Below are positions 12,201 through 51,078 of a stretch of 64,000 nt of DNA, piece by piece. The DNA is taken from the NCBI RefSeq assembly GCF_002159945.1, contig NZ_NFJQ01000008.1, positions 62,001 through 126,000 of the forward strand. The letters run 5' to 3'. Position 1 is the first letter of the stretch, and each line of letters begins with the position of its first letter. This stretch comes from Cloacibacillus sp. An23. GTDB lineage: Bacteria; Synergistota; Synergistia; Synergistales; Synergistaceae. The notes beneath the pieces were generated by a model that saw nothing but the letters and a program-made list of their open reading frames with translations, ran no database searches and was not told where the DNA came from. Both the position numbers and the translations under genes were made by a program.

Positions 12201-12284
12201 CCGAATCGTAAGAGACAGAAGGACAGTTGGAAAAAGCAATAGATTTTTGCCTCGTATCGGATAAAATTTAGTGCTGAGGAATAT

Positions 12285-12320
12285 AAAAAGCGGTGAATTA
12301 TATGTAAAGAGCGCTTTTTT
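12285..12320 (+). terminator. Possible attenuator hairpin in the locus 1 leader
   Basis: AAAAAGCG (12285-12292) and CGCTTTTT (12312-12319) can pair across a 19-base loop, with the right arm forming a T run. It lies between the promoter and the first gene, where a conditional terminator would act. Confidence 0.45.
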
Positions 12321-12453
12321 GTTCTATTGTGGTGTCGATAGTATTGAAAATAATTTTTATGAAGTAACGGCATCCGCAAAGGCAGCGAGCCGCGCGGGCG
12401 TCCGCGAAAAAATAAAAGGGAGGCAGAGTGCCAATGATGTGTACTCGAAAGTC

Positions 12454-13560: not shown

Positions 13561-13601
13561 TTGTTGATTTTTTTCATAAAAATTAAAGGAGGTTGTGCCA
13601 A

Positions 13602-14399: not shown

Positions 14400-14437
14400 T
14401 GCGTTTCTTTTAAAACTAAGATAGGGAGATGTTATTT

Positions 14438-15445
14438 ATGAAGCGAAACAAACGTCATCTGACTTTCATAATTTGCTTGTTGTTGGTAGTTTTCTTCGCT
14501 GTTCCATCATATTCTGCGGATAAACCTATTGCGCTTGAGTTTGGCCACATTCAGAATCCCGGGCATGCTCTTTATATTGCCCCAGAACAGTTTAAAAAAC
14601 TGGTAGAAGAGCGCAGCGGCGGGCGTGTAGTCGTTAATATTTATCCGGCGAGCCAGCTAGGCTCAGCGCGCGAAATGATGGAACAGGTCTCTATGGGGAC
14701 GCTCGACATGACTTTGGCTGATGCCTCTGATTGGGCTTCTGCTCTTAATATTCCAAAGCTCGGTGTTTTCAACCTTCCTTTCCTTACAGACAGCCTTGCT
14801 TCACAGGGAAAGATAATTGAAGAAATCATTCCTGCTGAAGCTCCGGCTATGCTTGAAGGGTCAGGGTTACGCCTGCTCATGACGTATTCAAACGGTTTAC
14901 GTCACCCGCTGATAAAGAGCAAACCAATAACGCGTCTGGAAGATATACAAGGGTTAAAAATAAGGACGCCGGAAACAAAATTATATGTTGATATTTGGAA
15001 CTGCTTAGGCGCGAACACCGTCACATCAGCGTGGAGCGAAGCATACACGATTCTTCAGCAGGGGGTCGCTGATGCGGTTGAAGCCGACGATGTCGGCCTT
15101 GTCAGCATGAATTTTCAGGAAGTCGGCCGTTATATGTCGAAATTGGGGTATCTTCCGCAGGCTTATATGGTGCTGATAAATGAGAATAAATGGAATTCTA
15201 TCCCGGAAGATTTGCAGAAAATTATAACGGAATGTGCTCTTGAAAATCAGAAACAGCAGATTGCTGACAGAGACGCAATGGGGCGAGATGCTGAAAAAAC
15301 GATTGAGGCCGCCGGCGTGACGATAAATGAGATTGCACCTGAAGAGCGTGAGCGAATGAGAGCAGCATGCCAGTCCATATATGACGAATATAGCAAGACT
15401 TATGGACTCGGAGAACTTATAGCCAAAATGGAAGCAATAAAGTAA
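14438..15445 (+). CDS. dctP: TRAP transporter solute-binding protein DctP (locus 1)
   Basis: A 335-residue periplasmic binding protein. The signal peptide has KRNKRH, a hydrophobic core (LTFIICLLLVVFFAV) and a YSA-DK cleavage site. Family motifs are GHIQNPGHALYIAPEQFKKLVEE, IYPASQLG, and LEDIQGLKIRTPET with the arginine that grips the substrate carboxylate. TRAP binding proteins take organic acids such as C4-dicarboxylates, sialic acid or keto acids. I chose the second ATG (14438) since GGGAG lies at the right distance. A strong hairpin follows before dctQ. Confidence 0.92.
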   Translation: MKRNKRHLTFIICLLLVVFFAVPSYSADKPIALEFGHIQNPGHALYIAPEQFKKLVEERSGGRVVVNIYPASQLGSAREMMEQVSMGTLDMTLADASDWASALNIPKLGVFNLPFLTDSLASQGKIIEEIIPAEAPAMLEGSGLRLLMTYSNGLRHPLIKSKPITRLEDIQGLKIRTPETKLYVDIWNCLGANTVTSAWSEAYTILQQGVADAVEADDVGLVSMNFQEVGRYMSKLGYLPQAYMVLINENKWNSIPEDLQKIITECALENQKQQIADRDAMGRDAEKTIEAAGVTINEIAPEERERMRAACQSIYDEYSKTYGLGELIAKMEAIK

Positions 15446-15464
15446 ATAGGCGCTAGCGCATTGC

Positions 15465-15526
15465 GTGAAAATGCGTATGCACTAGACTAGGCTGAAACAT
15501 ACGCATTTTCACTTTATTTAATTTTG
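15465..15526 (+). terminator. Hairpin between dctP and dctQ, locus 1
   Basis: GTGAAAATGCGTATG (15465-15479) and CATACGCATTTTCAC (15498-15512) form a perfect 15-bp stem with an 18-base loop, followed by a T-rich tail. It probably terminates part of the transcripts or protects the dctP mRNA, giving more binding protein than membrane subunits. Confidence 0.75.
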
Positions 15527-15552
15527 TAATGTCAACAAAAGGAGGAACTTTT

Positions 15553-16044
15553 TTGAAAACATTACTAAAAATAGACCGCTATATAGAATGTATACAAACG
15601 TATGTGTGTATGGCGTTGTTTATCGTAATTTTAGCTTTAGGCAGCGTCCAGGTTTTCGGGCGTTTTATTTTCCATACCGCGCCTGCATGGACGGAAGAAG
15701 CGATGCGTTTTTGCTGCATTTACCTGACTTTCATTGGTTCGGCACTCACCATCAGAGTTGATGGGCACGTTTCTGTTGATATTTTGATTAGTTTCTTAAA
15801 AGACAATAAGCTTAGAGCCTGGCTGTTTATTATAGGCAGAGTGCTATGTGTGATTTTTCTCATTATGTTCTTTCCAGCAGCAATCGAACTTGTGTCAAGG
15901 AGCGGCAGGTCACTCGGTGCGGCGATTCGAATACCTTATTCGTATATTTACGCGGCAGTGCCTATCGGTATAGCAATGATGCTTTGCTCTTACGCAAGCG
16001 CAATTCCTAAATTAGCGAAAGAATATGAAAAAGGGGAAAGATAG
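15553..16044 (+). CDS. dctQ: TRAP transporter small membrane subunit DctQ (locus 1)
   Basis: A 163-residue protein with four membrane segments, typical for DctQ: one at about residues 13-32, then the conserved FTAPAWTEEAMRF-like loop (HTAPAWTEEAMRFCCIYL), then RVDGHVSVDIL and a final pair. I place the start at TTG 15553, not the upstream ATG 15529, because AAAGGAGG (15538-15545) lies 7 bases before the TTG. The stop meets the dctM start codon with no gap (16044/16045), as in most TRAP operons. Confidence 0.9.
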   Translation: MKTLLKIDRYIECIQTYVCMALFIVILALGSVQVFGRFIFHTAPAWTEEAMRFCCIYLTFIGSALTIRVDGHVSVDILISFLKDNKLRAWLFIIGRVLCVIFLIMFFPAAIELVSRSGRSLGAAIRIPYSYIYAAVPIGIAMMLCSYASAIPKLAKEYEKGER

Positions 16045-17328
16045 ATGGTCGTCATTGCTTTAGTCACGCTTTTAATTTTTTTAGCCCTTGGCGTGCCGTG
16101 CTGCTTTGCTATAGGTTTGTCTGGACTCTTAGCGATTATATTAGGAAGCGACATCCCGACATTTATGGCCGTCCAGCAAGCAATACGCGGTATGAACTCT
16201 TTCTCTCTTATGGCAGGCCCGTTTTTTATATTGGCTGGAGAAATACTTGGTGCAGCGCACTTATCTAAAAGAATATTAAGTTTTTGCCGCGCGTGTATTG
16301 CCTCTGTTCGTGGCGGCATGGGGATGGTTTCAGTCCTTGCGAATATGATTTTTGCTGGGATTTCTGGTTCCGGAGCGGCAACTATGACGGCTGTCGGCAC
16401 ATTGACGGTGCCGGAACTGAAAAGAGCTGGGTACAAACGTTCTTTTATAGCTGCACTGATTGCCGGTTCCGGCGCGCTTGGCCCCATTATTCCGCCTAGC
16501 ACTAACATGATAGTGTTTGCGTCATTAACCGGATTCTCTATCGGCAAGCTTTTTCTTGGCGGATTGATTCCTGGTGTAGTTATTGGTGTGTGCCTAATGG
16601 CGATGTGTTATTGGTACGCTCGCAAGCACAATGTTGATGCAGGTGCGGATAAATTTAATCTGCGTGAAGTGTGGCGTACATTTAGAGAAGCATTTTTTGC
16701 ACTGATTACTCCGCTTATCATCCTGGGAGGAGTCATATCCGGAGTATTTACTGCAACTGAATCAGGAATTATCGCATGTCTTTATGGCCTAGTATGTGGA
16801 TTCTTCATATATAGGACTTTAAAGCTTAGCGATCTTGTCGGTATTTTTAAGAGAGCGTCTGCTTCGTCAGCCATGCTCATGATGCTTATGGGAATTTCGA
16901 ATATTTACTCATATATTTTTGCGCGTGAAAATATGGCTGGAACGATAAAGACATTTATGCTTTCACTTACACATGACCCGGCGGTGGTAGTGTTCATCAT
17001 TATTGTTGTGATGCTTATAATTGGATGCTTTATGGAGACATTAGCCGCAACAGCTGTTATTCTGCCTATAGTTTATCCAATTATAACGGGACTAGGCGTT
17101 GACCCGCTCCTGTTCGGTGTCATTTTCTCTGTTGCGACTGTTGTCGGAGGGCTGACACCGCCTGTCGGGCTTTACTTATTCTTGTCTATGAGTATCGCGG
17201 AAGCGCCGTTTAAAGAAGCGGTACGATATGCCGGTCATGTCGTTGCAATCATCCTGGCGGTAATGCTCCTTATGTGGTTCTTCCCGCCGATAGTCACTTT
17301 CGTTCCTAATCTTCTGATGGGAGCATAA
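16045..17328 (+). CDS. dctM: TRAP transporter large membrane subunit DctM (locus 1)
   Basis: A 427-residue protein with about 12 membrane segments, the size of DctM. Signature stretches are FFILAGEILGAAHLSKRI, GMGMVSVLANMIFAGISGSGAATMTAVG, GPIIPPSTNMIVFA (the GPxIPPS motif), and VGGLTPPVGLYLF near the end. DctM forms the sodium-driven transport channel and works with DctQ and the periplasmic DctP. Base composition matches the AT-rich block that ends here; the next gene, 15 bases on, is GC-rich. Confidence 0.93.
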   Translation: MVVIALVTLLIFLALGVPCCFAIGLSGLLAIILGSDIPTFMAVQQAIRGMNSFSLMAGPFFILAGEILGAAHLSKRILSFCRACIASVRGGMGMVSVLANMIFAGISGSGAATMTAVGTLTVPELKRAGYKRSFIAALIAGSGALGPIIPPSTNMIVFASLTGFSIGKLFLGGLIPGVVIGVCLMAMCYWYARKHNVDAGADKFNLREVWRTFREAFFALITPLIILGGVISGVFTATESGIIACLYGLVCGFFIYRTLKLSDLVGIFKRASASSAMLMMLMGISNIYSYIFARENMAGTIKTFMLSLTHDPAVVVFIIIVVMLIIGCFMETLAATAVILPIVYPIITGLGVDPLLFGVIFSVATVVGGLTPPVGLYLFLSMSIAEAPFKEAVRYAGHVVAIILAVMLLMWFFPPIVTFVPNLLMGA

Positions 17329-17343
17329 AGAGGAGTAATTTGC

Positions 17344-18648
17344 ATGAAGTTAACTGTGGAAACGGTGCGCGTGAAGGATATGCGTTTCGGCAAGAGGACA
17401 TGTCTTGAGGACGGCGTGCTTTACGTCAATAAGGCGGATATTCTCGCGTTCGCGGAGCCGGAGAGCTGCTTTGAAACTCTGAAGATAGACATTGCCTATC
17501 CCGGCGATTCCACGCGCATCATCAACGTCGTCGACGTGGTCCAGCCGCGCTGCAAGGCGTCCGACAACATAGACTGGCCCGGCGTGCTGACCGACGACTA
17601 TGAAATAGCCGGAAGCGGCGTCACGCGCGCCGTCGAGGGAGCCGGCATAGTGCTTTGCCAGAACGATACGTACTGGTCGAGGAAGTGGGGCTCGTTCGAC
17701 ATGAGCGGCGAGTGCGCCGCGATAAACCCGTACGCGAAGATGCCGGAGCTGGTCATCGAGCCTATGGCGCACGAAGGCGCCGACTTCCGCGAGTACCGTG
17801 AGGCGGTGCGCAGGATAGGCTTCAAGACGAGCGTGCTGCTCGCCAAGGTCACGCTGGACCACCCGGCGGAGTCGGTGGAGACCTTCGACAACGAGACTCA
17901 GTATCCCGGCCTTCCTAGCATAGCCTATTCGTATCAGATATACTCGAAGCAGTACGACACGCAGAACTACCGCGAGCCTATGCTATACGGCAACGCCGTG
18001 CCGGACACCTTCCCGCTCGTCATGCAGCCGACCGAGATACTCGACGGCGCTATATCGCCGTGCGGCGGCTTCCGCTGCGTCACGACCTACGAGATACAAA
18101 ACCACCCCGTGATAGTGGAGCTAATGCGCCGCCACGGCAAAGACCTGAACTTCGCCGGAGTGATAATAACCGTCACCTCTGTCGAGGCGAAGCACAGGAA
18201 CCTCGTCTCGAAGATGGCGGCGAGTCTGCTTAAGAATGTGTTCCACGCGGACGGCGTAATTGTTACAAAAGGCGTCGGCGGCGCTTCGACTCTGTGCGTC
18301 GGCGCGATAGCGAGCGAGGCGGAAAAGCTCGGCATCAAGGCCGTGCCGATAATCCAGATACTCAACGGCAAGAGCAACCTCGGCGTCGAATGTATGATAA
18401 GCGAGCCGAACGTGGATTCGATAGTCTGCTCAGGCACCTATTACCACAACTTCACGCTCCCGCCCGTCAAGACTCTGCTCGGCGGGCCGAAAGACGCGCT
18501 CTATTTGAGCGGAGACGACGGCGTTATCGGCGGGCACAAGATAGCCACCGGCGACCCCGCGATAGGGCAGGTGCGCTCGACCTATATGAAACAGGTCGGC
18601 CTAATGAGCCAGGTCGGCTATTCCTACGGCAAGGCCGTGGATTATTAA
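17344..18648 (+). CDS. Glycine/sarcosine/betaine reductase component B, GrdE-type subunit (locus 1)
   Basis: A 434-residue protein of the GrdE/GrdG/GrdI family, the pro-protein half of the substrate-specific component B (protein B). It has the family landmarks VVQPRCKA, MQPTEILDGA and RHGKDLNFAG. Known GrdE proteins cut themselves at a cysteine near residue 242 to make a pyruvoyl group that binds the amine substrate; here Cys240 and Cys245 lie in that segment. It pairs with the selenoprotein 15 bases downstream. Glycine, sarcosine or betaine are known family substrates, but the sugar-type neighbours (polyol dehydrogenase, SDR, FGGY kinase) suggest another substrate. Confidence 0.88.
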   Translation: MKLTVETVRVKDMRFGKRTCLEDGVLYVNKADILAFAEPESCFETLKIDIAYPGDSTRIINVVDVVQPRCKASDNIDWPGVLTDDYEIAGSGVTRAVEGAGIVLCQNDTYWSRKWGSFDMSGECAAINPYAKMPELVIEPMAHEGADFREYREAVRRIGFKTSVLLAKVTLDHPAESVETFDNETQYPGLPSIAYSYQIYSKQYDTQNYREPMLYGNAVPDTFPLVMQPTEILDGAISPCGGFRCVTTYEIQNHPVIVELMRRHGKDLNFAGVIITVTSVEAKHRNLVSKMAASLLKNVFHADGVIVTKGVGGASTLCVGAIASEAEKLGIKAVPIIQILNGKSNLGVECMISEPNVDSIVCSGTYYHNFTLPPVKTLLGGPKDALYLSGDDGVIGGHKIATGDPAIGQVRSTYMKQVGLMSQVGYSYGKAVDY

Positions 18649-18663
18649 AGGATGTGTAACGCA

Positions 18664-19974
18664 ATGGAACAGAAGAAATGGCGCGTCGTCTGCTATATAA
18701 ACCAGTTCTTCGGGCAGATAGGCGGGGAGGATATGGCTCACGTCGGCTTCTCGGTGAAGCATGAGGCCGTCGGCCCCGCGAAGCTCTTCCAGAATCTGCT
18801 GAAAGACTGCTGCGAGGTCGTCGCTACCGTGATATGCGGAGACAACTACTTCGCGGACGACACGGCGCGTTCGACCGCGGAAGGGCTCGCCATAGTGAGG
18901 GAGCTGAAGCCCGACCTGTTCATCGCAGGCCCGGCGTTCAACGCGGGACGCTACGGCATAAGCTGCGGCAGTATGGCATCGGCCGTCGGACGCGAACTGC
19001 ACATCCCGACCGTTACCGGGATGTACCCGGAGAACCCGGCCGTGGACCTCTTCAGGAAGGACACGTACATAGTCAAGACGGGCATAATGTCCTCGCAGCT
19101 CCGCAGCGTCGCGCCCGTCATGGCCGGCATCGGCCTTCGGCTGTTGACCGGAGAACATATAGGAAGCGCCGCCTCTGAAGGCTACATTATACGCGACGTC
19201 ATCCTCAACGAGGAACAGCCGCAGAACGCCGCGCAGCGCGCCATAGAAATGCTGATGAAGAAGATCAAGGGCGAGCCGTTTGAGAGCGAACTGCTCCCTC
19301 CGAAATTCGACATAGTCGAGCCGGCGCCGCCCGTCGCGGACATTACGCGCGCGAAACTCGCGCTCGTAACGGACGGCGGACTTATCCCGGAGAGCAATCC
19401 CGACAAGCTGAAACCGAACGGCAGCACGACATGGGGGCATTACGACTGGGACAAACTTATCTCCGAGCCTCACTTCGTCATACACAGCGGCTACGACGGC
19501 ACATGGGTCATGGAAAATCCGTATCGCCTATTCCCGGTCGACGTACTTCGCGAGGAAGTCGCCGAAGGCCGTCTCGGCTCGCTCGAGCCCGAAGTCTACG
19601 TCGCCACCGGCAACTGCGCCTCCGTAGCCGCCTCTAAGGAAAAAGGCCGTCAGATCGCGCAGGCGCTCCTCGCAAAAGGTGTGGACGCCGCCATACTGAC
19701 CTCTACCTGAGGCACGAGCACTCGTTGCGGGTCAACGATAGTAAAGGAAATAGAGCGCGCCGGCATACCGGTGACACAGATATGCGCCGTCGTGGACATT
19801 GCGGGCTCAGTAGGAGCGTCGCGCATACTGCGCGGATTTGCGATAACGTGCCCTGTCGGCAACCCGAACCTCAGCCCCGAGGATGAAAAGTCGTGCCGCA
19901 GACGCTACGTGGACAAAGCGCTCGAAATGCTCGCGGCCCCGGGCGAAAGAGGGCGTGTGGTAGACCTGATATAG
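18664..19974 (+). CDS. GrdB-type selenoprotein, substrate-specific reductase component B (locus 1)
   Basis: A 436-residue protein that includes selenocysteine encoded by an in-frame TGA at 19708-19710 (residue 349). Translation through it gives ILTST-U-GTSTRCG-STIVKEIERAGIP, the GrdB active-site signature, and runs on to a stop at 19972-19974. Homology on both sides of the TGA and the usual length (about 436) support readthrough. The ATG at 18664, with AAAGGA at good spacing, is preferred to the ATG at 18652. A stem-loop 11 bases after the TGA is the likely SECIS. The Sec attacks the substrate bound to the pyruvoyl subunit and passes the product to GrdA/GrdC/GrdD, which are not in this window. 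Confidence 0.93.
19722..19738 (+). promoter_or_regulatory. Candidate bacterial SECIS hairpin (locus 1)
   Basis: TCGTTG (19722-19727) and CAACGA (19733-19738) form a perfect 6-bp stem with the loop CGGGT, starting 12 bases after the last base of the TGA. The second selenoprotein gene has a stem of the same size and distance with a paired base change, which supports a conserved RNA structure for SelB. Confidence 0.75.
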
Positions 19975-20068
19975 CGGAAAACCTAACGCGGCTGTACGGA
20001 AAATAAGTTTGCTCGAGAGCCGCCGGATATGTAAAATAGATAAAACCGACCAACAGGAGCGAACTTAC

Positions 20069-20929
20069 ATGAGCGAAGATATATCGAGCAAAGCATTTTT
20101 CAGCCGCATACAGGAAAAATTGGAATCCCTTTCCAAGATGGAGCGCAAGACGGCGGAATGTATGATGGAAAACCGCGACAAGCTGATCTACTCCTCCATC
20201 ACGGAACTGGCCGAGCTTGCCGGGACGAGCGAGGCGACCGTCACGCGGGTCTGCGCCAAGCTCGGCTACTCAGGGTTCCAGGCGCTTAAAGTCAGCGTCG
20301 CGCGCGAGCTTGTGAGCCAGCAGGACAAGATACACGAAGACCTGACGGCAGGCTCGCCGCCCGAAATGATAATAGACAAGATATTCTCGAGCGCCATCCA
20401 CACTCTCACGATGACGAGGAAGGCGCTCGACGGAAAAGCCGTCGCTGGCAGCATAGACGCTATTTGCAGAGCCCGGCGCATAGTCGTGATAGGCAACGGG
20501 AACTCAGGCGCCATCGCGCTCGACGCGCAGCACAAATTCCTGCGCATCGGGCTCAACGTCAGCGCCTACACCGACGACCACATGCAGATGATAGCGGTCG
20601 TCTCCATGACGAAAGAGGACGTGCTGCTCGCCATATCGCACTCCGGAAGCTCGCGCGACGTCGCCGAGGCGATGAAGCTGGCGAAGGAAAGAGGCGTTAC
20701 CGTCATATCCATTACGGACAACGGCATATCGCCCGTTTCGAAACTGGCGGACATACGACTCTACACATATTCGCAGGAGACGAAGTACAGGACATACGCC
20801 ATATCGTCGCGCATTGCGGAGCTGACCATCATCGACACACTGTACACCGGCGTGTCGCTGAAGCTCGGCGATAAGGCCATACAAAATTTCGAAGCTCTGG
20901 AGAAGGCGCTCGTCGTCAAGAAATATTAA
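20069..20929 (+). CDS. RpiR/MurR-family transcriptional regulator
   Basis: A 286-residue regulator. Residues 1-80 are the RpiR helix-turn-helix domain (FFSRIQEKLESLSKMERKTAECMMEN, then ELAELAGTSEATVTRVCAKLGYSGFQ). Residues about 125-265 form a SIS sugar-phosphate-binding domain (RRIVVIGNGNSGAIALDAQHKFLRIG, LLAISHSGSSRDVAEAM). RpiR regulators sense phosphosugars, so the effector here may be the product of the FGGY kinase just downstream. The ATG at 20069 follows CAGGAG. It is likely the local regulator of locus 1. Confidence 0.92.
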   Translation: MSEDISSKAFFSRIQEKLESLSKMERKTAECMMENRDKLIYSSITELAELAGTSEATVTRVCAKLGYSGFQALKVSVARELVSQQDKIHEDLTAGSPPEMIIDKIFSSAIHTLTMTRKALDGKAVAGSIDAICRARRIVVIGNGNSGAIALDAQHKFLRIGLNVSAYTDDHMQMIAVVSMTKEDVLLAISHSGSSRDVAEAMKLAKERGVTVISITDNGISPVSKLADIRLYTYSQETKYRTYAISSRIAELTIIDTLYTGVSLKLGDKAIQNFEALEKALVVKKY

Positions 20930-20994
20930 AAACTGTGCCGGTTCTTTTCGGCGCGGCGCTTCCTCCCGGCGTACATACATTGGGGGAATAAATC

Positions 20995-22518
20995 GTGACG
21001 GAAAAACTTTTCGGCGTTGATTTCGGAACCGGCGGCTGCAAAGCCACCGTTATAGACAAAGAGGGAAACATCCTGGCCTCCGCCTTTGAGGAATACCCCT
21101 CCGAACACAAGCATCCCGGATGGTCCGAGCAGGCCCCGTCCCTCTGGATAGAAGCTTTCATCAAAACTGTAAAATCCTGCCGCGGACAGATGAGCGACGG
21201 CTTCGCCGGAATGCTCGCGCTCGCCGTCACCGCCTCGACGCACAACGCGGTGCTGATGGACGAAGCGGGAAAAGTCATACGCCCCTGCATCATGTGGAAC
21301 GACCAGCGCAGCGGCGGCCAATGTAATCGCCTCAAAGAAAAATACGGCGAAGAGATATTCCGCATAGGAATGCAGATGCCGACGCCGACGTGGACCCTGC
21401 CGCAGCTTCTCTGGCTGAAAGAGAACGAGCCGGAAAACTACGGAAAAATAAAGCGCCTCATGTTCACAAAAGACTACGTGCGCTCATGGGTGACGGGAGA
21501 CTTCTGCACCGACATCGTAGACGCGCAGGGGAGCCTGCTCTACGACGCGCGCAAAAACGCCTGGTCTCCCGAGCTCTGCGGAATGATAGAGCTGCCGCTA
21601 TCCGTCCTTCCAGAAATACGCGGAACAAAGGAAATCGTCGGAAAAGTCCGCGCCGAAGCGGCCGCGCTTACCGGACTTCCCGAAAGGCTCCCGGTAATAG
21701 CCGGATGCTCCGACACTGCCGCGGAAGACTTCAGCGCCGGAGCGGTCAACGCCGGACAGATAATAGTAAAGCTTGCGACCGCGGGCAACGTCAACCTCAT
21801 CACAGACAACGCCGTCCCCCACGCAAAATCATTCACGTACCCATACTCCGTAGAGGGCAAGTGGTACACCGTGACGGCGACCAACAGCTGCGCCTCTGCC
21901 TACAGATGGATGCGCGACGCGCTGTACCCCGCGGAAAAAGAACTCTGCGAAGCGAAGGGCGAAGACGTCTACATGCTAATGGACGAACAGGCGTCGAAAG
22001 CCGAACTCGGCGCGCGCGGCCTGATATTCCATCCGTACCTGCTGGGCGAACGCTGCCCGTACTTCAACCCCAACGCGCGCGGAGACTTCTTCGGCGTCAG
22101 CATGGTACACAACAAAGGCGACTTCGCCCGCGCGCTGCTCGAAGGCGTCGCATTCAGCCTTTACGACTGCCTCCAGGTACTCAAAGACTTCACCGGCAAC
22201 ATGGAAGACATCGTCATAATAGGCGGCGGTGCGAAAAGTCCGCTGTGGAGCCAGATCGTATGCGACGTATTCGGCCTCGAAGTAAAAATGCCCGAGCACG
22301 CGGAATCCTCCTTCGGCGGAGCGCTCCTCGCCGGAGTTGGCGTAGGCGCGTTCTCCGACGAAATCGAAGCCGCGCGCAAATGCGTAAGAATGAAACGCAC
22401 ATACAAACCGGCTTCGGAAAACCACGCGAAATACGAAAAAATATTCGCCATCTACAAAGAAATAGTAGAAGCCTCCGCACCGATATGGGACAAGCTCGCG
22501 CACATAGCGAATGAGTGA
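20995..22518 (+). CDS. FGGY-family carbohydrate kinase (xylulokinase-like)
   Basis: A 507-residue sugar/polyol kinase starting at GTG 20995 after GGGGGAA. The N-terminal phosphate loop is GVDFGTGGCKATVID; the catalytic Asp is likely in IMWNDQRS; the C-terminal ATP motif is IIGGGAKSPLWSQIVCDVFG. Its best match in feel is the XylB group, but FGGY kinases accept many sugars and polyols (xylulose, glycerol, ribulose, erythritol). With the GldA-like and SDR dehydrogenases of this locus it suggests that a polyol or ketose moiety is oxidised and phosphorylated. An imperfect hairpin follows the stop. Confidence 0.88.
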   Translation: MTEKLFGVDFGTGGCKATVIDKEGNILASAFEEYPSEHKHPGWSEQAPSLWIEAFIKTVKSCRGQMSDGFAGMLALAVTASTHNAVLMDEAGKVIRPCIMWNDQRSGGQCNRLKEKYGEEIFRIGMQMPTPTWTLPQLLWLKENEPENYGKIKRLMFTKDYVRSWVTGDFCTDIVDAQGSLLYDARKNAWSPELCGMIELPLSVLPEIRGTKEIVGKVRAEAAALTGLPERLPVIAGCSDTAAEDFSAGAVNAGQIIVKLATAGNVNLITDNAVPHAKSFTYPYSVEGKWYTVTATNSCASAYRWMRDALYPAEKELCEAKGEDVYMLMDEQASKAELGARGLIFHPYLLGERCPYFNPNARGDFFGVSMVHNKGDFARALLEGVAFSLYDCLQVLKDFTGNMEDIVIIGGGAKSPLWSQIVCDVFGLEVKMPEHAESSFGGALLAGVGVGAFSDEIEAARKCVRMKRTYKPASENHAKYEKIFAIYKEIVEASAPIWDKLAHIANE

Positions 22519-37701: not shown

Positions 37702-37863
37702 TACAAGCGGATCCGCGGGCGAGCTGAGTCCTTCAAAATGCTGAATTTTGCTTAATTTTCATATGAAGTGTGTTTAATATGTTATACTTCTGGCAGATAC
37801 GAAAAAGCGGCATGAACGTATCTAAAATGCGCGCGGATGCGGAGGAGGGCTGTCCACGGCAAA

Positions 37864-39921
37864 ATGGGCGCGTCTTACCTGAATGAATCTGTCATAAGCG
37901 CAGTCTCGCGCGCCGTGGGCCATTCGCTCGACGTTCCGGCCTGCGTGCTGGACTTGGAGCTGAAGCAGCGGCTCGTTCTCGGCGGTGGCGGAGAGCGGTT
38001 CGCGGCGGATCTGTCGCGTCTGCTTGAGAGCGCCTCCGGCCCGGATGAGGCCGCGCGTATCGCGGACGCCGCGTCCGTCTATTGGACGCCGTGCGAGGCT
38101 GACGGCAGGACGGTCTGCTATATCGCCGCGCCGGCGGAGCGAGGCGAGCTCGCTGCGGCCTATCTGAAAGTCCTGATACAGGCCGAGTGCCGCATGGACG
38201 CGGAGGGCGGGGCCGAGGAGGAGGGGCGCAAGCGCTCGATGCTCGTCAGCCAGCTCGCCGGCTCCGGACGCATAGACTCGGAGGCGGAGTCATACCTCGG
38301 CGCTCTCGGCTATGAACGCGACATACTTCGCTGCGCGGTGCTCTGCGTCGTGGAGACCGCGTCGGGACATCACGACGGCGAGGTGCCGTTCATTTCTCTC
38401 GAACGCTGGGCCGCCGGGGCCGGGATACTGTCTCGCGAGGATATCTACGGCTACGCCGACGCCGGGCAGATGATAGTGTTCAAGGCCGTCCCTGGCGCCG
38501 ACTATACCTCTTACGCCGGAGAGATAAAAAGCATGGCGGCCTCTATGTCGGAGTACATATCGGAGCGTTCCTCCGGGCTCGCCGAGCTTTCGGTATACGC
38601 CGGAAGCGCCTATCAGGGAGTCTCGCTGCTTCATAAGAGCTACGCCGAGGCGGCGTATCTCTATTCACGGCACGGCGGAACGGGCGGATCGTGCCTCTTC
38701 ATCAACGACTTTATATTCGAATGGCTTTACTCCAATCTTGACGGCGCGGCGCGAAGGAACCTCGCGCGCGATATATCGTCGGCGCTGGACGAGAACCAGG
38801 AAATATCCGCCACGGCGGTGCGCCTGTCGCTGTCGGACTGCAGCCCGATAAAATGCGCGGAAGCTCTTGGCGTCCACCGCAACACGGTACTCCAGCGCAT
38901 AAGAAAAATAAAAGAGAGGACCGCGCTCGACCCGCTGCACAGCGTGCGCGACCGCGTAGCTCTGCGCGCCTGCGTCATAAACAGGACGCGGCGCACGGTG
39001 TGGAACGGCGGCGTAATCGTGCAGCCGGGCAGCGTGCTCAGCCTCGGGCTGCGCCATCTTTCGGAGCTGCTTTACGAGAAGAGCGGCGGCGGATTCCAGC
39101 TCAACATCCACACGGTATCGACCTCCGGCGACAATTACAAGCTATTCGGCATGCTGATGTCCGGCGCGCTGAACGTAGTCGTCGGCTCGACGATAGCGCT
39201 CTGCCCGTACACCGACAACAAAGCGCTCACACTTCATCTGCCTTTCCTCTTCAAGTCGCCGGACGAGGCGGAGTACGTCGTCCGCACCACGGTCCTCCCG
39301 GAGCTGCGCGACAGCCTCGACGAGGCCGGGATAATATGCTGCGGCCTATGGTCGATGGGCTGGCGCTGCCTCACCTCGCGCGGCACGCCCATCCGCGTCC
39401 CGTCCGACCTGAAGGGACGGCGGATAAGGATACTCGCGTCGGCCTCGATACGCGACTACTTCGCCGGCCTCGGCGCGGTGCCGCTCCAGATTTACTATAA
39501 CAACATCAAAGACGCGCTCGCCTCGAATATAATCAACTGCCAGGAGAATCCCTACAAGAACATCCTCGACATGGAATTCTACAAATACCAGGACTATGTG
39601 ACGGAGCTGCCTATATGGTACAGCATGGAGGCGCTCTGCATCTCTAAGAAATCGTGGCTCGAACTCGACGTGGAACGCCAGGAAATGTTCCGACAGGCGG
39701 CGGAGGAGAGCGGGGCGTGGGTGCGCCGCCGCCAGGTCGAGACGAACCGCGCCGCGAAGGAGGAGCTCGTGCGCCTCGGCATGAAGGTAATTGTCCCGAC
39801 CGACGACGAGATGGCTGTATGGCGCAGGAGCGTCAGGCCTCTTTACGAGGCGGAATCTCGGCGCGAATTCCTCACCAAGATAATGAAGGCGAAGAGACGC
39901 TATGCAAAGAGCAGACGCTGA
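37864..39921 (+). CDS. CdaR/PucR-type regulator fused to a TRAP solute-binding (DctP) domain
   Basis: A 685-residue cytosolic one-component regulator with an unusual architecture. Residues 1-130: a CdaR-like sensor region. About 130-300: a degenerate GGDEF-like region as in CdaR/PucR proteins. About 300-360: the PucR-type DNA-binding domain (ALGVHRNTVLQRIRKIKERT, with V337 in the recognition region). Residues 379-680: a complete TRAP DctP domain without signal peptide, keeping SDLKGRRIRI (R522 equals the carboxylate-binding arginine) and QENPYKNI (Q560-I567). It resembles the binding protein at 41279 over this part. The start at 37864 is uncertain (ATG 37837 is possible). It overlaps the next regulator by 20 bases. 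Confidence 0.85.
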   Translation: MGASYLNESVISAVSRAVGHSLDVPACVLDLELKQRLVLGGGGERFAADLSRLLESASGPDEAARIADAASVYWTPCEADGRTVCYIAAPAERGELAAAYLKVLIQAECRMDAEGGAEEEGRKRSMLVSQLAGSGRIDSEAESYLGALGYERDILRCAVLCVVETASGHHDGEVPFISLERWAAGAGILSREDIYGYADAGQMIVFKAVPGADYTSYAGEIKSMAASMSEYISERSSGLAELSVYAGSAYQGVSLLHKSYAEAAYLYSRHGGTGGSCLFINDFIFEWLYSNLDGAARRNLARDISSALDENQEISATAVRLSLSDCSPIKCAEALGVHRNTVLQRIRKIKERTALDPLHSVRDRVALRACVINRTRRTVWNGGVIVQPGSVLSLGLRHLSELLYEKSGGGFQLNIHTVSTSGDNYKLFGMLMSGALNVVVGSTIALCPYTDNKALTLHLPFLFKSPDEAEYVVRTTVLPELRDSLDEAGIICCGLWSMGWRCLTSRGTPIRVPSDLKGRRIRILASASIRDYFAGLGAVPLQIYYNNIKDALASNIINCQENPYKNILDMEFYKYQDYVTELPIWYSMEALCISKKSWLELDVERQEMFRQAAEESGAWVRRRQVETNRAAKEELVRLGMKVIVPTDDEMAVWRRSVRPLYEAESRREFLTKIMKAKRRYAKSRR

Positions 39922-44213: not shown

Positions 44214-44966
44214 ATGTATTTGGCTAATGAGTTGGACGTAAACGGACGTCTTCTGCGCGGAAACGTGCGCATGCCGGACTCGGGCGGTCCTTTCCCGACG
44301 ATAGTCTTCCTCCACGGCTTCACTGTGTGGAAGACGGGGCCGCAGAGGCTTTACGAAGAGTTCGTCCGTATGGCCGTGAAGGAAGGCTTCTGCGTCGTGC
44401 GCTACGACTTCTACGGCACGGGCGAGAGCGAGGGCGAGTTCTATGAAATGACGATAGGCAGCGAAATGAACGAGACCGCCGCCATCTTCGAGTGGGCCGC
44501 CAAGCAGCCGTACGTCGATGTAAACAACATGTTCCTCGGCGGACACAGCCTCGGCGCTCTGCTCGCGCTCGTCGAAGCGCCTCATATACAGCCTAAGGCG
44601 GCCTTCGGATGGTCTACGGCTCTCACGATGCTCTTCCAGGCGGGACAGCGCACGCGCACGATGCGCGGGCCGACTGAGCGCGGATGGGACATCGACGGCC
44701 TCGAGCTCTCGCGCGAATTCATGGACGAGTGCGCCGGCATGGACTTCCTCGAGATGGTGAAGGGCTACGACAAGCCGGTACTTCTCATCCACGGCACTGG
44801 CGACGTGGACATCCCCGTCGAGAGCGCCTACGCGCTTAAGAAGGTCTACGGGGACAACTGCGAGCTCGACATCGTGGAAGGGGCGAACCACCGCTTCCTT
44901 TCGCTTCCGTGGAAGAAGCACGCTTACGAGAAGACTCTGGAGTTCCTGAAGAAACAGCTTGGCTGA
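44214..44966 (+). CDS. Alpha/beta-fold hydrolase
   Basis: A 250-residue cytosolic serine hydrolase. The oxyanion stretch is VFLHGFTVWKTGP, the nucleophile elbow GGHSLGA (Ser near residue 111), the acid in HGTGDVDIP and the histidine in GANHRFLSL. This is the complete triad of the family that includes feruloyl esterases and dienelactone-type hydrolases. AAGGAG precedes the ATG. Set between a TRAP transporter and a LarA-like protein, it probably splits an ester, amide or thioester bond of the imported compound or its product (inference). Confidence 0.88.
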   Translation: MYLANELDVNGRLLRGNVRMPDSGGPFPTIVFLHGFTVWKTGPQRLYEEFVRMAVKEGFCVVRYDFYGTGESEGEFYEMTIGSEMNETAAIFEWAAKQPYVDVNNMFLGGHSLGALLALVEAPHIQPKAAFGWSTALTMLFQAGQRTRTMRGPTERGWDIDGLELSREFMDECAGMDFLEMVKGYDKPVLLIHGTGDVDIPVESAYALKKVYGDNCELDIVEGANHRFLSLPWKKHAYEKTLEFLKKQLG

Positions 44967-44978
44967 GAGGTGGAAGCA

Positions 44979-46247
44979 ATGGAGATAAAGATCCCTTACG
45001 GGAAGACTTATCAGACGCTTGACATCAAAGAGGAATATCAGCTCGTCGAATCGAAGATACAGGAGCTCGGCGGCGGCGCGGACGGCGACAGGATCGTCCT
45101 TGAGGCTATGGCTTCGCCCATAGCTTCACCGAAGCTCAGCGAGCTTGCGGCGGGGAAGAAGAACGCGGTGGTCATAATCAGCGACCACACGCGCCCCGTG
45201 CCGAGCAAACAGATAATCCCGCACATGCTGGCGGAGCTGCGCGCCGGGAATCCCGACATCGACATAACCCTGCTCGTCGCGACCGGCTGCCACAGGGGCA
45301 CCACTCCCGAGGAGCTCGTGCATAAGCTCGGCGAGGAAATCGCGTCGCGCGAGCGCATAGTCGTCCACGACTGCGACAGTTCCCCGCTGACGGAGCTCGG
45401 CGTCCTTCCTTCCGGAGCGCGCCTCGTCGTCAACTCGCTCGTCGCGAACGCGGAGCTTGTTGTATCCGAAGGCTTCATCGAGCCTCACTTCTTCGCCGGC
45501 TTCTCCGGCGGCCGCAAGAGCATACTTCCCGGCGTATGCAGCCGCGTGACGGTGCTAGGCAATCACTGCGCGGATTTCATCGACGATCCGAAGTCGCGCA
45601 TGGGCGTGATTGATGGCAACCCGATAAACCGCGACATGGAATGCGCCGCTCGCATGGCGAAGCTCGCATACATCGTCAACGTCGTGGTCAACGAGGCTCA
45701 CGAGGTCGTAGCGGCCTTCGCCGGCGACGCGATAGAGGCCCATCACGCGGGATGCGCCTATCTCGCAAAGTACTGCGAGGCCGACCCTGCGTACAAGGCG
45801 GACATCGTAATAACGTCCAACGGCGGCGCCCCGCTCGACCAGAACGTCTATCAGGCGGTCAAGGGACTTACGACCGCTGCGGACGCGGCCGGCGAAGACG
45901 GCGCTCTGATAATATGCGCCGAGTGCGCGGACGGAATCGGAGGCGACAGCTTCTACAAGGCGCTCAGCGAGTGTTCGACCCCCGAGGAGCTGCTCGAGGA
46001 GATACGCCGCGTGCCGATGGACGAAACTGTGCCAGACCAGTGGCAGTATCAGATACTCGCCCGGATACTCGAGAAGCATCACGTCTACTTCGTCACACGC
46101 CCCGAGCTCGAAAAAGAGATAACGGCGATGAAGATGGAATACGCGCCCTCGCTCGAGGAGGCCTACGCGCGCGCCCGCGCGCTCAGGGGCGCTTCCGCGC
46201 GCGTGACGGTCATCCCCAACGGGGTTTCCCTGATAATCAAACAGTAA
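44979..46247 (+). CDS. LarA-family protein (nickel-pincer 2-hydroxyacid racemase/epimerase)
   Basis: A 422-residue member of the LarA family (former DUF2088). The residues that bind the nickel-pincer nucleotide in Lactobacillus LarA have clear counterparts: His in TGCHRGT, His and Lys in PHFFAGFSGGRKSILPG, and a further His in LGNHCAD. LarA homologs racemise lactate, malate, phenyllactate and other 2-hydroxyacids. A LarC2 protein, needed to make the cofactor, is encoded at 50605, which supports activity in this cell. GAGAGG places the start at 44979, 12 bases after the hydrolase stop. Confidence 0.88.
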   Translation: MEIKIPYGKTYQTLDIKEEYQLVESKIQELGGGADGDRIVLEAMASPIASPKLSELAAGKKNAVVIISDHTRPVPSKQIIPHMLAELRAGNPDIDITLLVATGCHRGTTPEELVHKLGEEIASRERIVVHDCDSSPLTELGVLPSGARLVVNSLVANAELVVSEGFIEPHFFAGFSGGRKSILPGVCSRVTVLGNHCADFIDDPKSRMGVIDGNPINRDMECAARMAKLAYIVNVVVNEAHEVVAAFAGDAIEAHHAGCAYLAKYCEADPAYKADIVITSNGGAPLDQNVYQAVKGLTTAADAAGEDGALIICAECADGIGGDSFYKALSECSTPEELLEEIRRVPMDETVPDQWQYQILARILEKHHVYFVTRPELEKEITAMKMEYAPSLEEAYARARALRGASARVTVIPNGVSLIIKQ

Positions 46248-46276
46248 CCCAGCAGCAATAACATAAGCCGCTCCCT

Positions 46277-46310
46277 CAGCCTTCCGCCTTTGCCGTTGCG
46301 CGGAAGGCCG
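46277..46310 (+). other. Intercistronic hairpin before GrdE-like gene
   Basis: CCTTCCGC (46280-46287) and GCGGAAGG (46300-46307) form an 8-bp stem in the 94-base gap after the LarA-like gene. There is no T run, so it may be a processing or stability element and not a terminator. Confidence 0.45.
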
Positions 46311-46341
46311 GGGGCGGCGTGTCACAAAAAGGAGTGAAAAC

Positions 46342-47607
46342 ATGGCAAAACCTTTTGAAATAGATTATATCTACGTGCGCTCGGTGCGCTTCGGAGAGAA
46401 GTCGTCGCTCGAGGACGGCGTGCTGACGATAAACCGCGACGAGCTGCGCGAGCTTTGCTCGAGCGACCTGTTTTCGCGGCTCGAGATAGAGCTCGCGGCT
46501 CCGGGCGAAAGCTGCCGCATACTCGCGATACACGACGTCATGCAGCCGCGCTGCAAGGTCGAGAACCCCGACGAGACTTATCCCGGCATTCTCGGCAAAC
46601 TCGCGCCGGCCGGCGAGGGGAAGACGCTGGCGCTCAAGGGCGTCGTCGTCTCCGACATCTATTACGCTAAATGCAACATCAAGTATTACCTCGATATGGG
46701 CGGCCCCGCGGCGCGCTACTCGCATTTCTCGAAGCACTTCCACGTCTGCATAGACGCGGAGCCCGCCGATGGCGTGAGCGACGCCAGCTACGCCGAGGCG
46801 CTGAAGCTCGCATCGCTCAAGGCGAACGTCTACCTCGCGAAGCTCGGCCTCGGACATAAAATCGACTACTCGGAGCGCTTCGAGTGGAACCCCATCGAGT
46901 ACAAGCCCGGCGAGAAGCGTCTGCCGCGCGTCGCATACTTCGCGACGCACCTCGCATCGCACGACACGTGGAACTTCCTCTTCTACGGACAGAGCGCTCT
47001 CGGCTTCCTGCCGATGGTGGTGCAGCCGACTGAGATACTCGACGGCGCGATGGTCTGGCGCTACTGGGAGCCGAACTACTATCTCCAGAACGAGATGTAT
47101 ATCAAAGAGCTGCTCAACCGCCACGGCAAGGATCTCGAATTCGTCGGATGCGTCTTCGCGAACAACGTCATGAAGCTCGACGGCAAAGAGACGATGGGCA
47201 TGATAGGCGCGCGCCTCTGCCGCGACACCCTGCACGCGGACTGCGTGGTAGTCAACAAATCCGGCATGGGACACGCGCAGCTCGACTCGGCCCTCGCCTT
47301 CAACTGGATGGAGAAGCTCGGTATGCCGGCGATAAGCAACCAGGCCGCCGTCTCTAACTACGAGCCGGGGGACATGCTCGTAATAGCAGACCCGCGCGTG
47401 GACGCGGTCATAAGCAGCGGGCGCAACTGGGACGTGGAACACCCGAAGGTCGACCGCCTCATAGGCGAACACGCGAACGTGCCGTGCCTGCTCGGCTACA
47501 ATCCGTGGGGGCCTTTCACGCACACGACGAACTACGCGCTGTGCGGCTGCTGGTCTCAGATAGGCGATTATTTCCAGACGGCGGATGCCGACCTGGAGTG
47601 GAAGTAA
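46342..47607 (+). CDS. GrdE-type subunit, divergent, lacking the pyruvoyl cysteine (locus 2)
   Basis: A 421-residue member of the GrdE/GrdG/GrdI family, aligned with the locus 1 protein through DIYVRSVRFGEKSSLEDGVL-like start, HDVMQPRCKVENPDETYPGILG, VVQPTEILDGA and RHGKDLEFVG. In the segment where GrdE is cut at a cysteine to form the pyruvoyl group (residues 234-265 here) there is no Cys, Ser or Thr at all, and the segment is 3 residues shorter than in locus 1. The subunit therefore probably stays uncut or uses other chemistry. It is paired with a Sec-containing GrdB-type protein 13 bases downstream. Confidence 0.85.
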   Translation: MAKPFEIDYIYVRSVRFGEKSSLEDGVLTINRDELRELCSSDLFSRLEIELAAPGESCRILAIHDVMQPRCKVENPDETYPGILGKLAPAGEGKTLALKGVVVSDIYYAKCNIKYYLDMGGPAARYSHFSKHFHVCIDAEPADGVSDASYAEALKLASLKANVYLAKLGLGHKIDYSERFEWNPIEYKPGEKRLPRVAYFATHLASHDTWNFLFYGQSALGFLPMVVQPTEILDGAMVWRYWEPNYYLQNEMYIKELLNRHGKDLEFVGCVFANNVMKLDGKETMGMIGARLCRDTLHADCVVVNKSGMGHAQLDSALAFNWMEKLGMPAISNQAAVSNYEPGDMLVIADPRVDAVISSGRNWDVEHPKVDRLIGEHANVPCLLGYNPWGPFTHTTNYALCGCWSQIGDYFQTADADLEWK

Positions 47608-47620
47608 GGAGGTATGCGCC

Positions 47621-48940
47621 ATGTCTGATAAATTAAGGATACTTCATTACATAAACCAGTTCTACGGAGGTATAGGCGGCGAGGATCAGGCGAGCGTCGG
47701 ACTCTCGACAAAAGACGGCCCCGTCGGCCCCGGTATGCTTATGAAGGCCGTGCTCGCGGGACGCGGCGAGATCGTCAAGACGGTCATCTGCGGCGACAAC
47801 TATATATCCGAGCACCAGGCCGAGGTGATACCGCAGATACTCGATATAATCCGCGAGGTGAAGCCCGACCTTGTGCTCGCGGGCCCAGGCTTCAACGCCG
47901 GACGCTACGGCATAGCCTGCGCGGCGCTGACTGCGGCCGTGCAGGAGCAGCTCAAGATCCCCTGCGCTACGGCGCTGTTCTCGGAGAACCCGGGCACAGA
48001 CCTTTATAAGAACCGCTGCTACATCGTGCAGACCGACAACAACGCGAAGAACATGAAGGACGCGATGACGCGCCTCGTCGAGTTCGGCCTCAAGCTCGCC
48101 TCGGGCGAAACGATACGCGACGGCAAGCAGGAGGGCTACCACGGCAGCGGCCCCGCGATAGAGGTGGACTACTCGACGCCGGCCTGCAAGCGCGGCGTGG
48201 ACATGCTTCTCAACAAATATTACGGCAGGCCCTTCCGCACAGAGGTCGTCATGCCGAACCACGAGGAGATACCGGTGCCGGTGCTGTCGAAGCCGCTTTC
48301 AGAATGCCTCGTAGCGGTCGTGACCGACGGCGGACTCGTGCCGCGCGGCAACCCTGACAGGATGCCGCCGACGAACTCTAAGAACTGGCGCTGCTACTCG
48401 TTCGCAGGGCAGGACTACCTGAAAGCCGAGGATTACGAGGTCAGCCATCAGGGCTACAACAACGCCTTCGTACTTCAGGACCCGAACCGCCTAGTGCCTG
48501 TCGACTGCCTGCGCGAGGAGGTAAAGAAAGGGCGCATAGGCGCGCTGCTCGACCACTACTACATGACCGCGGGCGTCATGACTCCGCTCGACATGAGCAA
48601 GAAGCTCGGCGAAGGCATAGCGCAGGCGCTGCTCGCGGACCATGTCGACGCCGTGATCCTCACATCCACCTGAGGAACGAGCTCTCGCTGCGGCGCAGTG
48701 ATGACAAAAGAAATACAGCGCGCCGGCATACCGGTCGTGCATGTCACGAACCTTACGAAGATATCGGAGGGCATAGGCGCGAACAGGATACTTCGCGGCA
48801 ACAGCGTCCTCCACGTATTCGGCAACCCGTCGCTTCCTCACGACAAGGAAGTAGACTACCGCCGCGAGATGGTCGAGAAGGCTCTCGCCCTTCTCGAGGA
48901 AACTCCGCAGAACGGAGCCCACGCGGTAGTCTCCGAGTAA
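47621..48940 (+). CDS. GrdB-type selenoprotein (locus 2)
   Basis: A 439-residue protein including selenocysteine encoded by TGA at 48671-48673 (residue 351). Readthrough gives ILTST-U-GTSSRCG-AVMTKEIQRAGIP, the GrdB signature, and continues as normal coding sequence to TAA at 48938-48940. Start ATG 47621 follows AAGGAGG. The N-terminal ILHYINQFYGGIGGEDQA and NAGRYGIACAAL are family blocks shared with the locus 1 protein. The Sec and nearby Cys (U-x5-C) likely form the redox-active selenide-sulfide pair. The general partners GrdA, GrdC and GrdD are not in the window. Confidence 0.93.
48685..48701 (+). promoter_or_regulatory. Candidate bacterial SECIS hairpin (locus 2)
   Basis: TCGCTG (48685-48690) and CAGTGA (48696-48701) form a 6-bp stem (one G-U pair) with loop CGGCG, starting 12 bases after the last base of the TGA, as in locus 1. 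Confidence 0.75.
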
Positions 48941-50604: not shown

Positions 50605-51078
50605 ATGGCTGAAGGAGAATCCGGCGGCCTCATAAGAGGACGCGCCATAGAGATAAGCGCGAACATCGACGACATGACTGGCGAGGACCTCGGCGCTGCG
50701 ATGGAGCTGCTGCTCGCTGCCGGGGCGCTGGACGTTTGGTTCGAGCATATACAGATGAAAAAGAACCGTCCGGCGGTGAAGCTCTGCGTTCTGGCCGCGC
50801 CGGAGGAAACGGAGCGCTTCGCGGAGCTTATGCTGCGCCATACGACGACGCTAGGCGTGCGTATGCGCGAGGTCGAGCGGCTGATGCTCGCGCGGGAGAT
50901 CCGTAAAGTCGGGACGCGCTACGGCGAAGTGCGCTTCAAGCGCGGCATGCTCGGCGGCGAAACGCTGAAAGAGACGCCCGAGTACGAGGACATAAGAAGG
51001 ATAGCGCACGACACCGGGCTTCCGATGGCCCGCGTGCGCGCGGAGGCCGCCGTGGATGCGGAAATTCAGGCACTTTAA
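50605..51078 (+). CDS. larC2: LarC2-like nickel-insertion protein for the nickel-pincer cofactor
   Basis: A 157-residue protein equal to the C-terminal half of LarC (former DUF111). The diagnostic stretch is ISANIDDMTGEDLGAAMELLLAAGALDVWFEHIQMKKNRPAVKL, followed by TTTLGVRMREVERLML. LarC inserts nickel into the pincer nucleotide used by LarA, and in many bacteria it is made as LarC1 plus LarC2. LarC1, LarB and LarE are not in this window. It supports a functional cofactor for the LarA-like protein 4.4 kb upstream. It overlaps the next gene by 23 bases. Confidence 0.85.
   Translation: MAEGESGGLIRGRAIEISANIDDMTGEDLGAAMELLLAAGALDVWFEHIQMKKNRPAVKLCVLAAPEETERFAELMLRHTTTLGVRMREVERLMLAREIRKVGTRYGEVRFKRGMLGGETLKETPEYEDIRRIAHDTGLPMARVRAEAAVDAEIQAL

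What the first reader, a model, noticed from the sequence alone, without database searches (positions are those of the whole stretch)
47043..47137. GrdE-like subunit without any residue able to form the pyruvoyl group
Seen: residues 234-265 of the locus 2 GrdE-like protein, between DGA and RHGKDL, contain no Cys, Ser or Thr; the locus 1 paralogue has Cys240 and Cys245 there and three more residues. Known: GrdE is cut at a Cys near position 242 to make an essential pyruvoyl cofactor that binds the substrate amine. Inference: the locus 2 enzyme does not use a pyruvoyl Schiff base, so its substrate may not be an amine.
Basis: partly seen in the sequence, partly recalled or inferred. Interest (0 to 1): 0.8.

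Follow-up and report, generated by a model that had tools for sequence, protein, structure and literature searches.

The report
FarE-type reductase subunit lacking pyruvoyl cysteine
A gut-type bacterium carries a selenium-dependent reductase whose partner subunit has lost the self-cleavage site used by glycine-reducing enzymes; it belongs to the recently named fluoroacetate reductase family (FarE), in which this loss was already published, but here it sits in an unusual gene cluster with a lactate-racemase-like enzyme and a different acid transporter.

Summary
The window protein (46342-47607, +) has DGA-MVWRYWEPNYYLQ at residue 234, where GrdE/GrdG have DGA-xxSGNC242-VxxC246. The cleavage loop is six residues shorter and Trp242 aligns with the pyruvoyl cysteine. 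The absence of C/S/T alone is weak evidence; the conserved loop deletion is strong: all 33 homologues fetched lack Cys at 242/246, and Arg240-Tyr241-Trp242 is invariant in the rows aligned.

It is not a new kind of protein. It passes the NCBIfam equivalog model for fluoroacetate reductase subunit FarE (755.7 bits, cut-off 675). Leong et al. (PMC10838667) already reported that FarE of Cloacibacillus porcorum lacks both cysteines, like betaine GrdI. The partner is a Sec-containing FarB-like GrdB without CxxC.

What is new is the context. No MFS antiporter or radical-SAM gene is adjacent; instead FarEB follows a TRAP transporter, a serine hydrolase and a lactate racemase (LarA). This cluster is conserved (65-81% for all but two regulators) in a MAG labelled Clostridiales. 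The substrate may be fluoroacetate or another 2-substituted acid; sequence cannot decide.

The parts
46342..47607 (+). FarE-type GrdE-like component B subunit (421 aa), no pyruvoyl cysteine
   Evidence: PF09338 264.9 bits; NCBIfam NF053623.1 fluoroacetate reductase subunit FarE 755.7 bits, cut-off 675
47041..47136 (+). Residues 234-265: former cleavage segment, six residues shorter than in GrdE/GrdG, no Cys/Ser/Thr
47059..47067 (+). Arg240-Tyr241-Trp242, invariant in the aligned FarE proteins; Trp242 opposite pyruvoyl Cys242
   Evidence: invariant in A1 (9 rows) and A2 (22 rows)
47621..48940 (+). FarB-type GrdB selenoprotein (439 aa with Sec)
   Evidence: PF07355 428.7 bits up to the in-frame UGA, NCBIfam selenoprotein B models across it; same architecture in the FarB rows
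48671..48673 (+). In-frame TGA (Sec) in STUGTSSRCG; canonical UGTCTRC reads UGTSSRC here, so no CxxC
   Evidence: tRNA-Sec and GrdA with one in-frame TGA present in the genome
44970..46247 (+). LarA-type nickel-dependent lactate racemase
   Evidence: NCBIfam NF033504 575.2 bits, cut-off 460; best solved match 2yjg lactate racemase
44214..44966 (+). Alpha/beta hydrolase with GHSLG nucleophile elbow (Ser), not a haloacid dehalogenase type by motif
   Evidence: Pfam; sequence read; 80% identical in L117
42884..44170 (+). TRAP transporter large permease DctM
   Evidence: TIGR00786; 76% in L117
42315..42878 (+). TRAP transporter small permease DctQ
   Evidence: position between DctP and DctM; 65% to the corresponding ORF in L083/L117
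41279..42280 (+). TRAP solute-binding protein DctP
   Evidence: PF03480, TIGR00787; 71-72% in L083
39902..41005 (+). PucR-type regulator, probable regulator of the cluster
   Evidence: PF13556; 44% in L083
37837..39921 (+). Regulator with a PucR HTH and a DctP-like domain in one open frame
   Evidence: PF13556 + PF03480; 44% over 690 aa in L083
50605..51078 (+). LarC C-terminal half (nickel insertion, LarA cofactor maturation), possibly linked
   Evidence: PF01969 positions 242-374; N-terminal half lies on another contig beside LarE

Best explanation
The protein is a FarE-type component B subunit, an orthologue of the fluoroacetate reductase subunit, working with the FarB-like selenoprotein encoded next to it. 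It is made and used uncut, without a pyruvoyl group. The Sec selenolate of FarB attacks the alpha carbon of a small 2-substituted carboxylate whose leaving group departs without Schiff-base activation (fluoride in the known case). The Se-carboxyalkyl group then passes to the shared GrdA/GrdC system to give an acyl phosphate. FarE supplies part of the complex and possibly of the pocket: the invariant Arg240-Tyr241-Trp242 that replaces the cleavage loop could hold the carboxylate or the leaving group. In this genome the substrate is imported by the TRAP transporter in the same cluster. Shown: site loss, family membership, Sec codon, conserved cluster, GrdA and tRNA-Sec in the genome. Inferred: chemistry, role of RYW, transporter role, substrate.
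For: NCBIfam FarE equivalog passed. Same site in C. porcorum-like L066, whose gene order MFS-radical SAM-FarE-FarB matches the published farACEB, and in Pyramidobacter sp. C12-8 (L096), a strain reported to degrade fluoroacetate (PMC12366334) whose only FarE-like copy is this one (G118). Tree: FarE clade 100/99. FarB lacks CxxC as published. Whole cluster (FarE 81%, FarB 75%, hydrolase 80%, DctM 76%, DctP 72%, LarA 70%, DctQ 65%) conserved in L083/L117. GrdA with in-frame TGA and tRNA-Sec in the genome.
Against: Gene context differs from farACEB: no MFS antiporter or radical SAM next to it, LarA and TRAP instead. The window's FarB keeps one Cys (SSRCG) that the MFS-linked FarB group replaces with Gly (SSRGG). 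The published link to fluoroacetate rests on induction and comparative genomics, not on a purified enzyme or a mutant. The AlphaFold model is unreliable exactly at residues 204-250, so no structural support for RYW.
Confidence: 0.77

Rival explanations
1. The complex is FarE-like in mechanism, but the natural substrate of this LarA/TRAP-linked lineage is not a haloacetate; it is a 2-hydroxy- or other 2-substituted acid related to lactate, with LarA interconverting the isomers so that the usable one reaches FarEB, as proline racemase serves D-proline reductase.
For: LarA passes the lactate racemase cut-off, ends 94 bp before FarE, and the LarA-hydrolase-TRAP-FarEB set is kept in L083/L117. A LarA at 57% also occurs near FarEB in L095 beside a different TRAP. 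Lactate permease genes lie near FarEB in 15 of the 33 loci compared. Glycerate kinase follows FarB in L083.
Against: Displacing hydroxide with a selenolate is chemically hard without activation and no activating enzyme is apparent. Most far loci have no LarA within the stretch fetched. Lactate permeases and TRAP systems would also fit fluoroacetate uptake. FarE residues invariant in the other two large clades are almost all kept (13 mostly mild differences).
Confidence: 0.25
2. The substrate is an amine that cannot form a Schiff base (quaternary or tertiary), as for betaine reductase, so loss of the cysteines says nothing about non-amines.
For: The betaine-type subunit of this genome (L003, GSFMPSSSK) also lacks both cysteines; its close homologue sits beside grdH and a BCCT carrier. 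Leong et al. themselves suggested the preferred substrate of FarE could be another amine.
Against: GrdI keeps the full-length loop while FarE deletes six residues; FarE is a separate clade. Neighbours are acid transporters and LarA, not BCCT or amine carriers.
Confidence: 0.1
3. A carbonyl cofactor is still made, from a residue elsewhere in FarE or on FarB (for example a Ser-derived formylglycine), and does the same job.
For: Leong et al. raised a FarB serine as a candidate, modified by the radical SAM enzyme. FarE keeps other conserved Cys (71 and 301 invariant in A1 and A2).
Against: No radical SAM gene next to the window locus; no cleavage-like motif at another position was identified; conserved Cys elsewhere are not at the GrdE/PrdA processing site.
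Confidence: 0.07
4. The gene is a decaying paralogue without function.
For: None found beyond the loss of the site.
Against: Open frame full length, 57-81% identity across several phyla, 174 FarE and 168 FarB columns invariant in 21 loci, cluster conserved between phylum labels.
Confidence: 0.02

Closest known systems
FarE/FarB, fluoroacetate reductase (farACEB) of Cloacibacillus porcorum MFA1
   Same: FarE 72% and FarB 63% identical to the C. porcorum-like locus L066; both pyruvoyl Cys missing; Sec in STUG; CxxC of GrdB missing; NCBIfam FarE cut-off passed
   Different: No farA antiporter or farC radical SAM beside it; TRAP transporter, serine hydrolase and LarA instead; FarB keeps one Cys (SSRCG, not SSRGG); no MFA data known for this organism, which could not be named
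GrdI/GrdH, betaine reductase component B
   Same: No pyruvoyl Cys (published for GrdI); pairs with a Sec GrdB
   Different: Loop length kept with Phe at 242; separate branch; BCCT transporter context; quaternary amine substrate
GrdE/GrdG, glycine and sarcosine reductase component B
   Same: Same Pfam family PF09338, about 33% identity, DGA and HGKD landmarks
   Different: Asn-Cys242-x3-Cys246 cleavage loop present there, deleted here
PrdA, D-proline reductase proprotein
   Same: Analogous pairing of this kind of subunit with a Sec subunit; a racemase gene in the cluster
   Different: Window protein gives no hit to TIGR04480 at E 0.001; no pyruvoyl Cys
LarA nickel-pincer lactate racemase
   Same: Window neighbour passes NF033504; LarE and both LarC halves encoded in the genome
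   Different: Association with FarEB was not described in the two fluoroacetate papers read

Membership tests
FarE (fluoroacetate reductase subunit) | Passes the curated equivalog model NF053623.1 | tested here: met
   755.7 bits vs 675, residues 1-418 of 421
FarE (fluoroacetate reductase subunit) | Lacks the two conserved cysteines for pyruvoyl formation (Leong et al.) | tested here: met
   definition
FarE (fluoroacetate reductase subunit) | Partner FarB is a selenoprotein without CxxC | tested here: met
   UGTSSRCG; first Cys of CxxC is Ser, second kept
FarE (fluoroacetate reductase subunit) | Operon farA (MFS antiporter)-farC (radical SAM)-farE-farB (described for C. porcorum; not part of the NCBIfam definition) | tested here: not met
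   TRAP, hydrolase and LarA instead; published P. piscolens also lacks farA and farC
FarE (fluoroacetate reductase subunit) | Induced by and active on monofluoroacetate | not testable with these tools
   needs culture or purified protein
GrdE/GrdG pyruvoyl-type component B | Cys242 (and Cys246) in the cleavage loop | tested here: not met
   six-residue deletion, Trp242
GrdI betaine reductase | Groups with betaine-type subunits and keeps the full-length Cys-less loop | tested here: not met
   separate clade, shorter loop
PrdA | Passes TIGR04480 | tested here: not met
   no hit at E 0.001
LarA lactate racemase (neighbour 44970-46247) | Passes NF033504 and genome encodes cofactor maturation | tested here: met
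   575.2 vs 460 bits; LarE and LarC halves; LarB not searched

The most novel reading that the evidence does not exclude
In the LarA/TRAP-linked lineage (window and L083) the pyruvoyl-free selenoenzyme acts on a 2-hydroxy- or 2-acyloxy-acid related to lactate, with LarA supplying the right isomer: a selenocysteine-dependent reductive cleavage of an alpha C-O bond feeding propionyl- or acetyl-phosphate formation through GrdA/GrdC.
Probability: 0.1. Interest if true: 0.85.

Novelty: new member of a known kind. Interest (0 to 1): 0.4.

Why it matters
It shows that pyruvoyl-free GrdE-like subunits form a conserved family found in Synergistota, Bacillota and single contigs labelled Actinomycetota and Myxococcota/Deltaproteobacteria, many from animal guts, so reductive cleavage without a Schiff base is probably widespread. 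Fluoroacetate is unlikely to be common in all those hosts, so the natural substrate of the family is open. The conserved LarA-TRAP-FarEB cluster gives a concrete, testable clue (a 2-substituted or 2-hydroxy acid).

Tried and rejected
Solved-structure search with FarE: no match; with FarB one chance hit at E 0.38. AlphaFold2 of FarE with 22 sequences: mean pLDDT 70, but residues 204-250 (the segment in question) below 50, so the RYW pocket idea could not be tested; PDB fold search gave nothing below E 0.02. SECIS folding after the UGA: small hairpin, z -1.2, not decisive. Rfam: only four tRNAs in 16000-52000. The serine hydrolase was considered as a fluoroacetate dehalogenase and rejected on its GHSLG (Ser) motif. 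The DctP closest solved relatives were considered for ligand inference, but no paper on their ligands was in the library, so no weight is placed on them. Naming the organism was not possible: genome contigs leaves out the window's own genome.

Full report
Observation. The open frame 46342-47607 (+) encodes 421 residues that match Pfam PF09338, the GrdE-type component B subunits, with 264.9 bits. Residues 234-265 are DGAMVWRYWEPNYYLQNEMYIKELLNRHGKDL, window 47041-47136, without Cys, Ser or Thr, and the locus 1 paralogue has Cys240 and Cys245 and three more residues. Composition alone would be weak evidence: eight overlapping 32-residue stretches of this same protein are free of C/S/T.

Alignment. 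Fifty-nine distinct GrdE-like proteins from this genome and other Synergistota were aligned. Glycine- and sarcosine-type subunits read DGA-x-x-S-G-N-C-V-S-A-C-D-K. In P. acidaminophilum GrdG the DGA starts at residue 234, as in the window protein, and the cysteines are 242 and 246; the pyruvoyl peptide of C. difficile GrdE starts at residue 242 (PMC9908766). The window protein is six residues shorter between DGA and HGK and has Trp242 there. So the cleavage loop is deleted, not just substituted. All 33 FarE-clade proteins fetched show this; Arg240-Tyr241-Trp242 is invariant in the 9 and 22 aligned rows. Ser, Thr or Cys do occur elsewhere in the segment in some members (Cys244 in L094 and L102, Cys252 in L073, L099 and L101), never at 242/246.

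What it is. NCBIfam model NF053623.1, fluoroacetate reductase subunit FarE (equivalog), gives 755.7 bits against a cut-off of 675. Among Synergistota genomes searched, 9 of 188 (10 copies) have a protein at 57% identity or more; the next best is 36%. A scan of 84,980 species genomes found 23 loci, mostly Lachnospiraceae and other Bacillota, plus Pyramidobacter, a contig labelled Olsenella and one labelled Deltaproteobacteria. In a 3.59-Mb genome (G137) the order is MFS transporter, radical SAM, FarE, FarB, which is the published farACEB of C. porcorum; G136 lacks the radical SAM as published for C. evryensis. Pyramidobacter sp. C12-8 (L096) is named and is reported to degrade fluoroacetate (PMC12366334).

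What was already known. Leong et al. 2023 (PMC10838667) found the far operon about 5,000-fold induced by monofluoroacetate and wrote that farE lacks the two conserved cysteines for pyruvoyl formation and is not a proprotein, like betaine grdI, and that farB lacks CxxC. The betaine-type subunit of the window's own genome (L003) also lacks the cysteines but keeps the loop length; its homologue in Enterococcus gilvus sits beside grdH and a BCCT carrier.

Partner. FarB runs 47621-48940 with an in-frame TGA at 48671-48673 in STUGTSSRCG. Canonical GrdB of this genome reads STUGTCTRCG. Two FarB forms exist: SSRGG in the clade that contains the MFS/radical-SAM operons, and SSRCG or STRCG in the rest, including the window and C12-8. 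In the FarE tree the SSRGG group is a clade (99/97), the C12-8/Lachnospiraceae group another (98/96), and the window plus L083 form a 100/100 pair weakly placed (82/72) beside the first. Because carriers from both large clades are linked to fluoroacetate, fluoroacetate reduction is plausible for the window pair, but its position is not firmly supported.

Context. Upstream on the same strand are a PucR regulator with a DctP-like domain, a PucR regulator, TRAP DctP, DctQ and DctM, a serine hydrolase and LarA. LarA passes the lactate racemase cut-off (575.2 vs 460). In a MAG labelled Clostridiales (L083 with L117, one contig; the label was not verified here and its G+C, 60%, is close to the window's 59%) the same genes occur: FarE 81%, hydrolase 80%, DctM 76%, FarB 75%, DctP 72%, LarA 70%, DctQ 65%, regulators 44%, arranged as two divergent groups with TetR and radical SAM between. 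That such a rearranged cluster stays together argues for a shared function. L095 has LarA (57%) near FarEB with an unrelated TRAP. Lactate permease genes are near FarEB in 15 of the 33 loci compared (some of these are the same genome fetched twice), and several others have esterases or M20 hydrolases. The theme is small carboxylic acids. The genome also encodes GrdA with an in-frame TGA, tRNA-Sec, LarE and LarC in two separated halves.

Mechanism. The best-supported account is that FarE is used uncut, and that Sec of FarB displaces a leaving group from the alpha carbon of a small acid without Schiff-base help, passing the Se-carboxyalkyl group to GrdA. Arg240-Tyr241-Trp242 in place of the loop is a candidate for binding carboxylate or halide; this is inference, and the structure model is too poor there to test it.

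Limits. The organism could not be named. No experiment ties this locus to any substrate. The literature link of far to fluoroacetate is transcriptional and comparative. A paper library of open-licence articles was searched; subscription papers such as the biochemical work on GrdI were not read.

Noticed in passing
window 12271-22518: Locus 1: a second unusual GrdE/GrdB pair (shifted Cys pair SPCGGFRC; Sec GrdB without CxxC, UGTSTRCG) inside a cluster with glycerol-dehydrogenase-like, SDR, TRAP, RpiR and FGGY kinase genes. Apart from the SDR, which was not recovered, the cluster is conserved 66-86% in G137 (L075). No NCBIfam equivalog; possibly a further undescribed reductase type.
   Followed up: partly
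L066:12530-13399, L067:6048-6902, L069:8002-8820, L092:10645-11496 and others: Many far loci carry a shortened GrdB-like protein (C-terminal half, Cys in place of Sec: STCGTSTRCG), often beside a TetR regulator; no Cys copy was found in the window's genome. Possibly a sensor or accessory acceptor.
   Followed up: partly
window 50605-51078 and G000:C5:231159-232025: LarC is split: the C-terminal half lies in the window near LarA, the N-terminal half on another contig beside LarE.
   Followed up: no
L056, L057, L061, L062, L064, L065: Other GrdE-like types in G136/G137 with altered cleavage segments (SFVGSHNTVCSDK, TFLGAHCTVCSDK, NQGGLYGEGYC), some without Cys at 242.
   Followed up: no
window 46248-46341: Inverted repeat CCTTCCGC...GCGGAAGG between LarA and FarE, without a T run; could be an attenuator or processing hairpin (sequence).
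   Followed up: no
window 37837-39921: One open frame joins a PucR-type HTH and a TRAP solute-binding domain, conserved at 44% over 690 residues in L083; possibly a ligand-sensing regulator.
   Followed up: no
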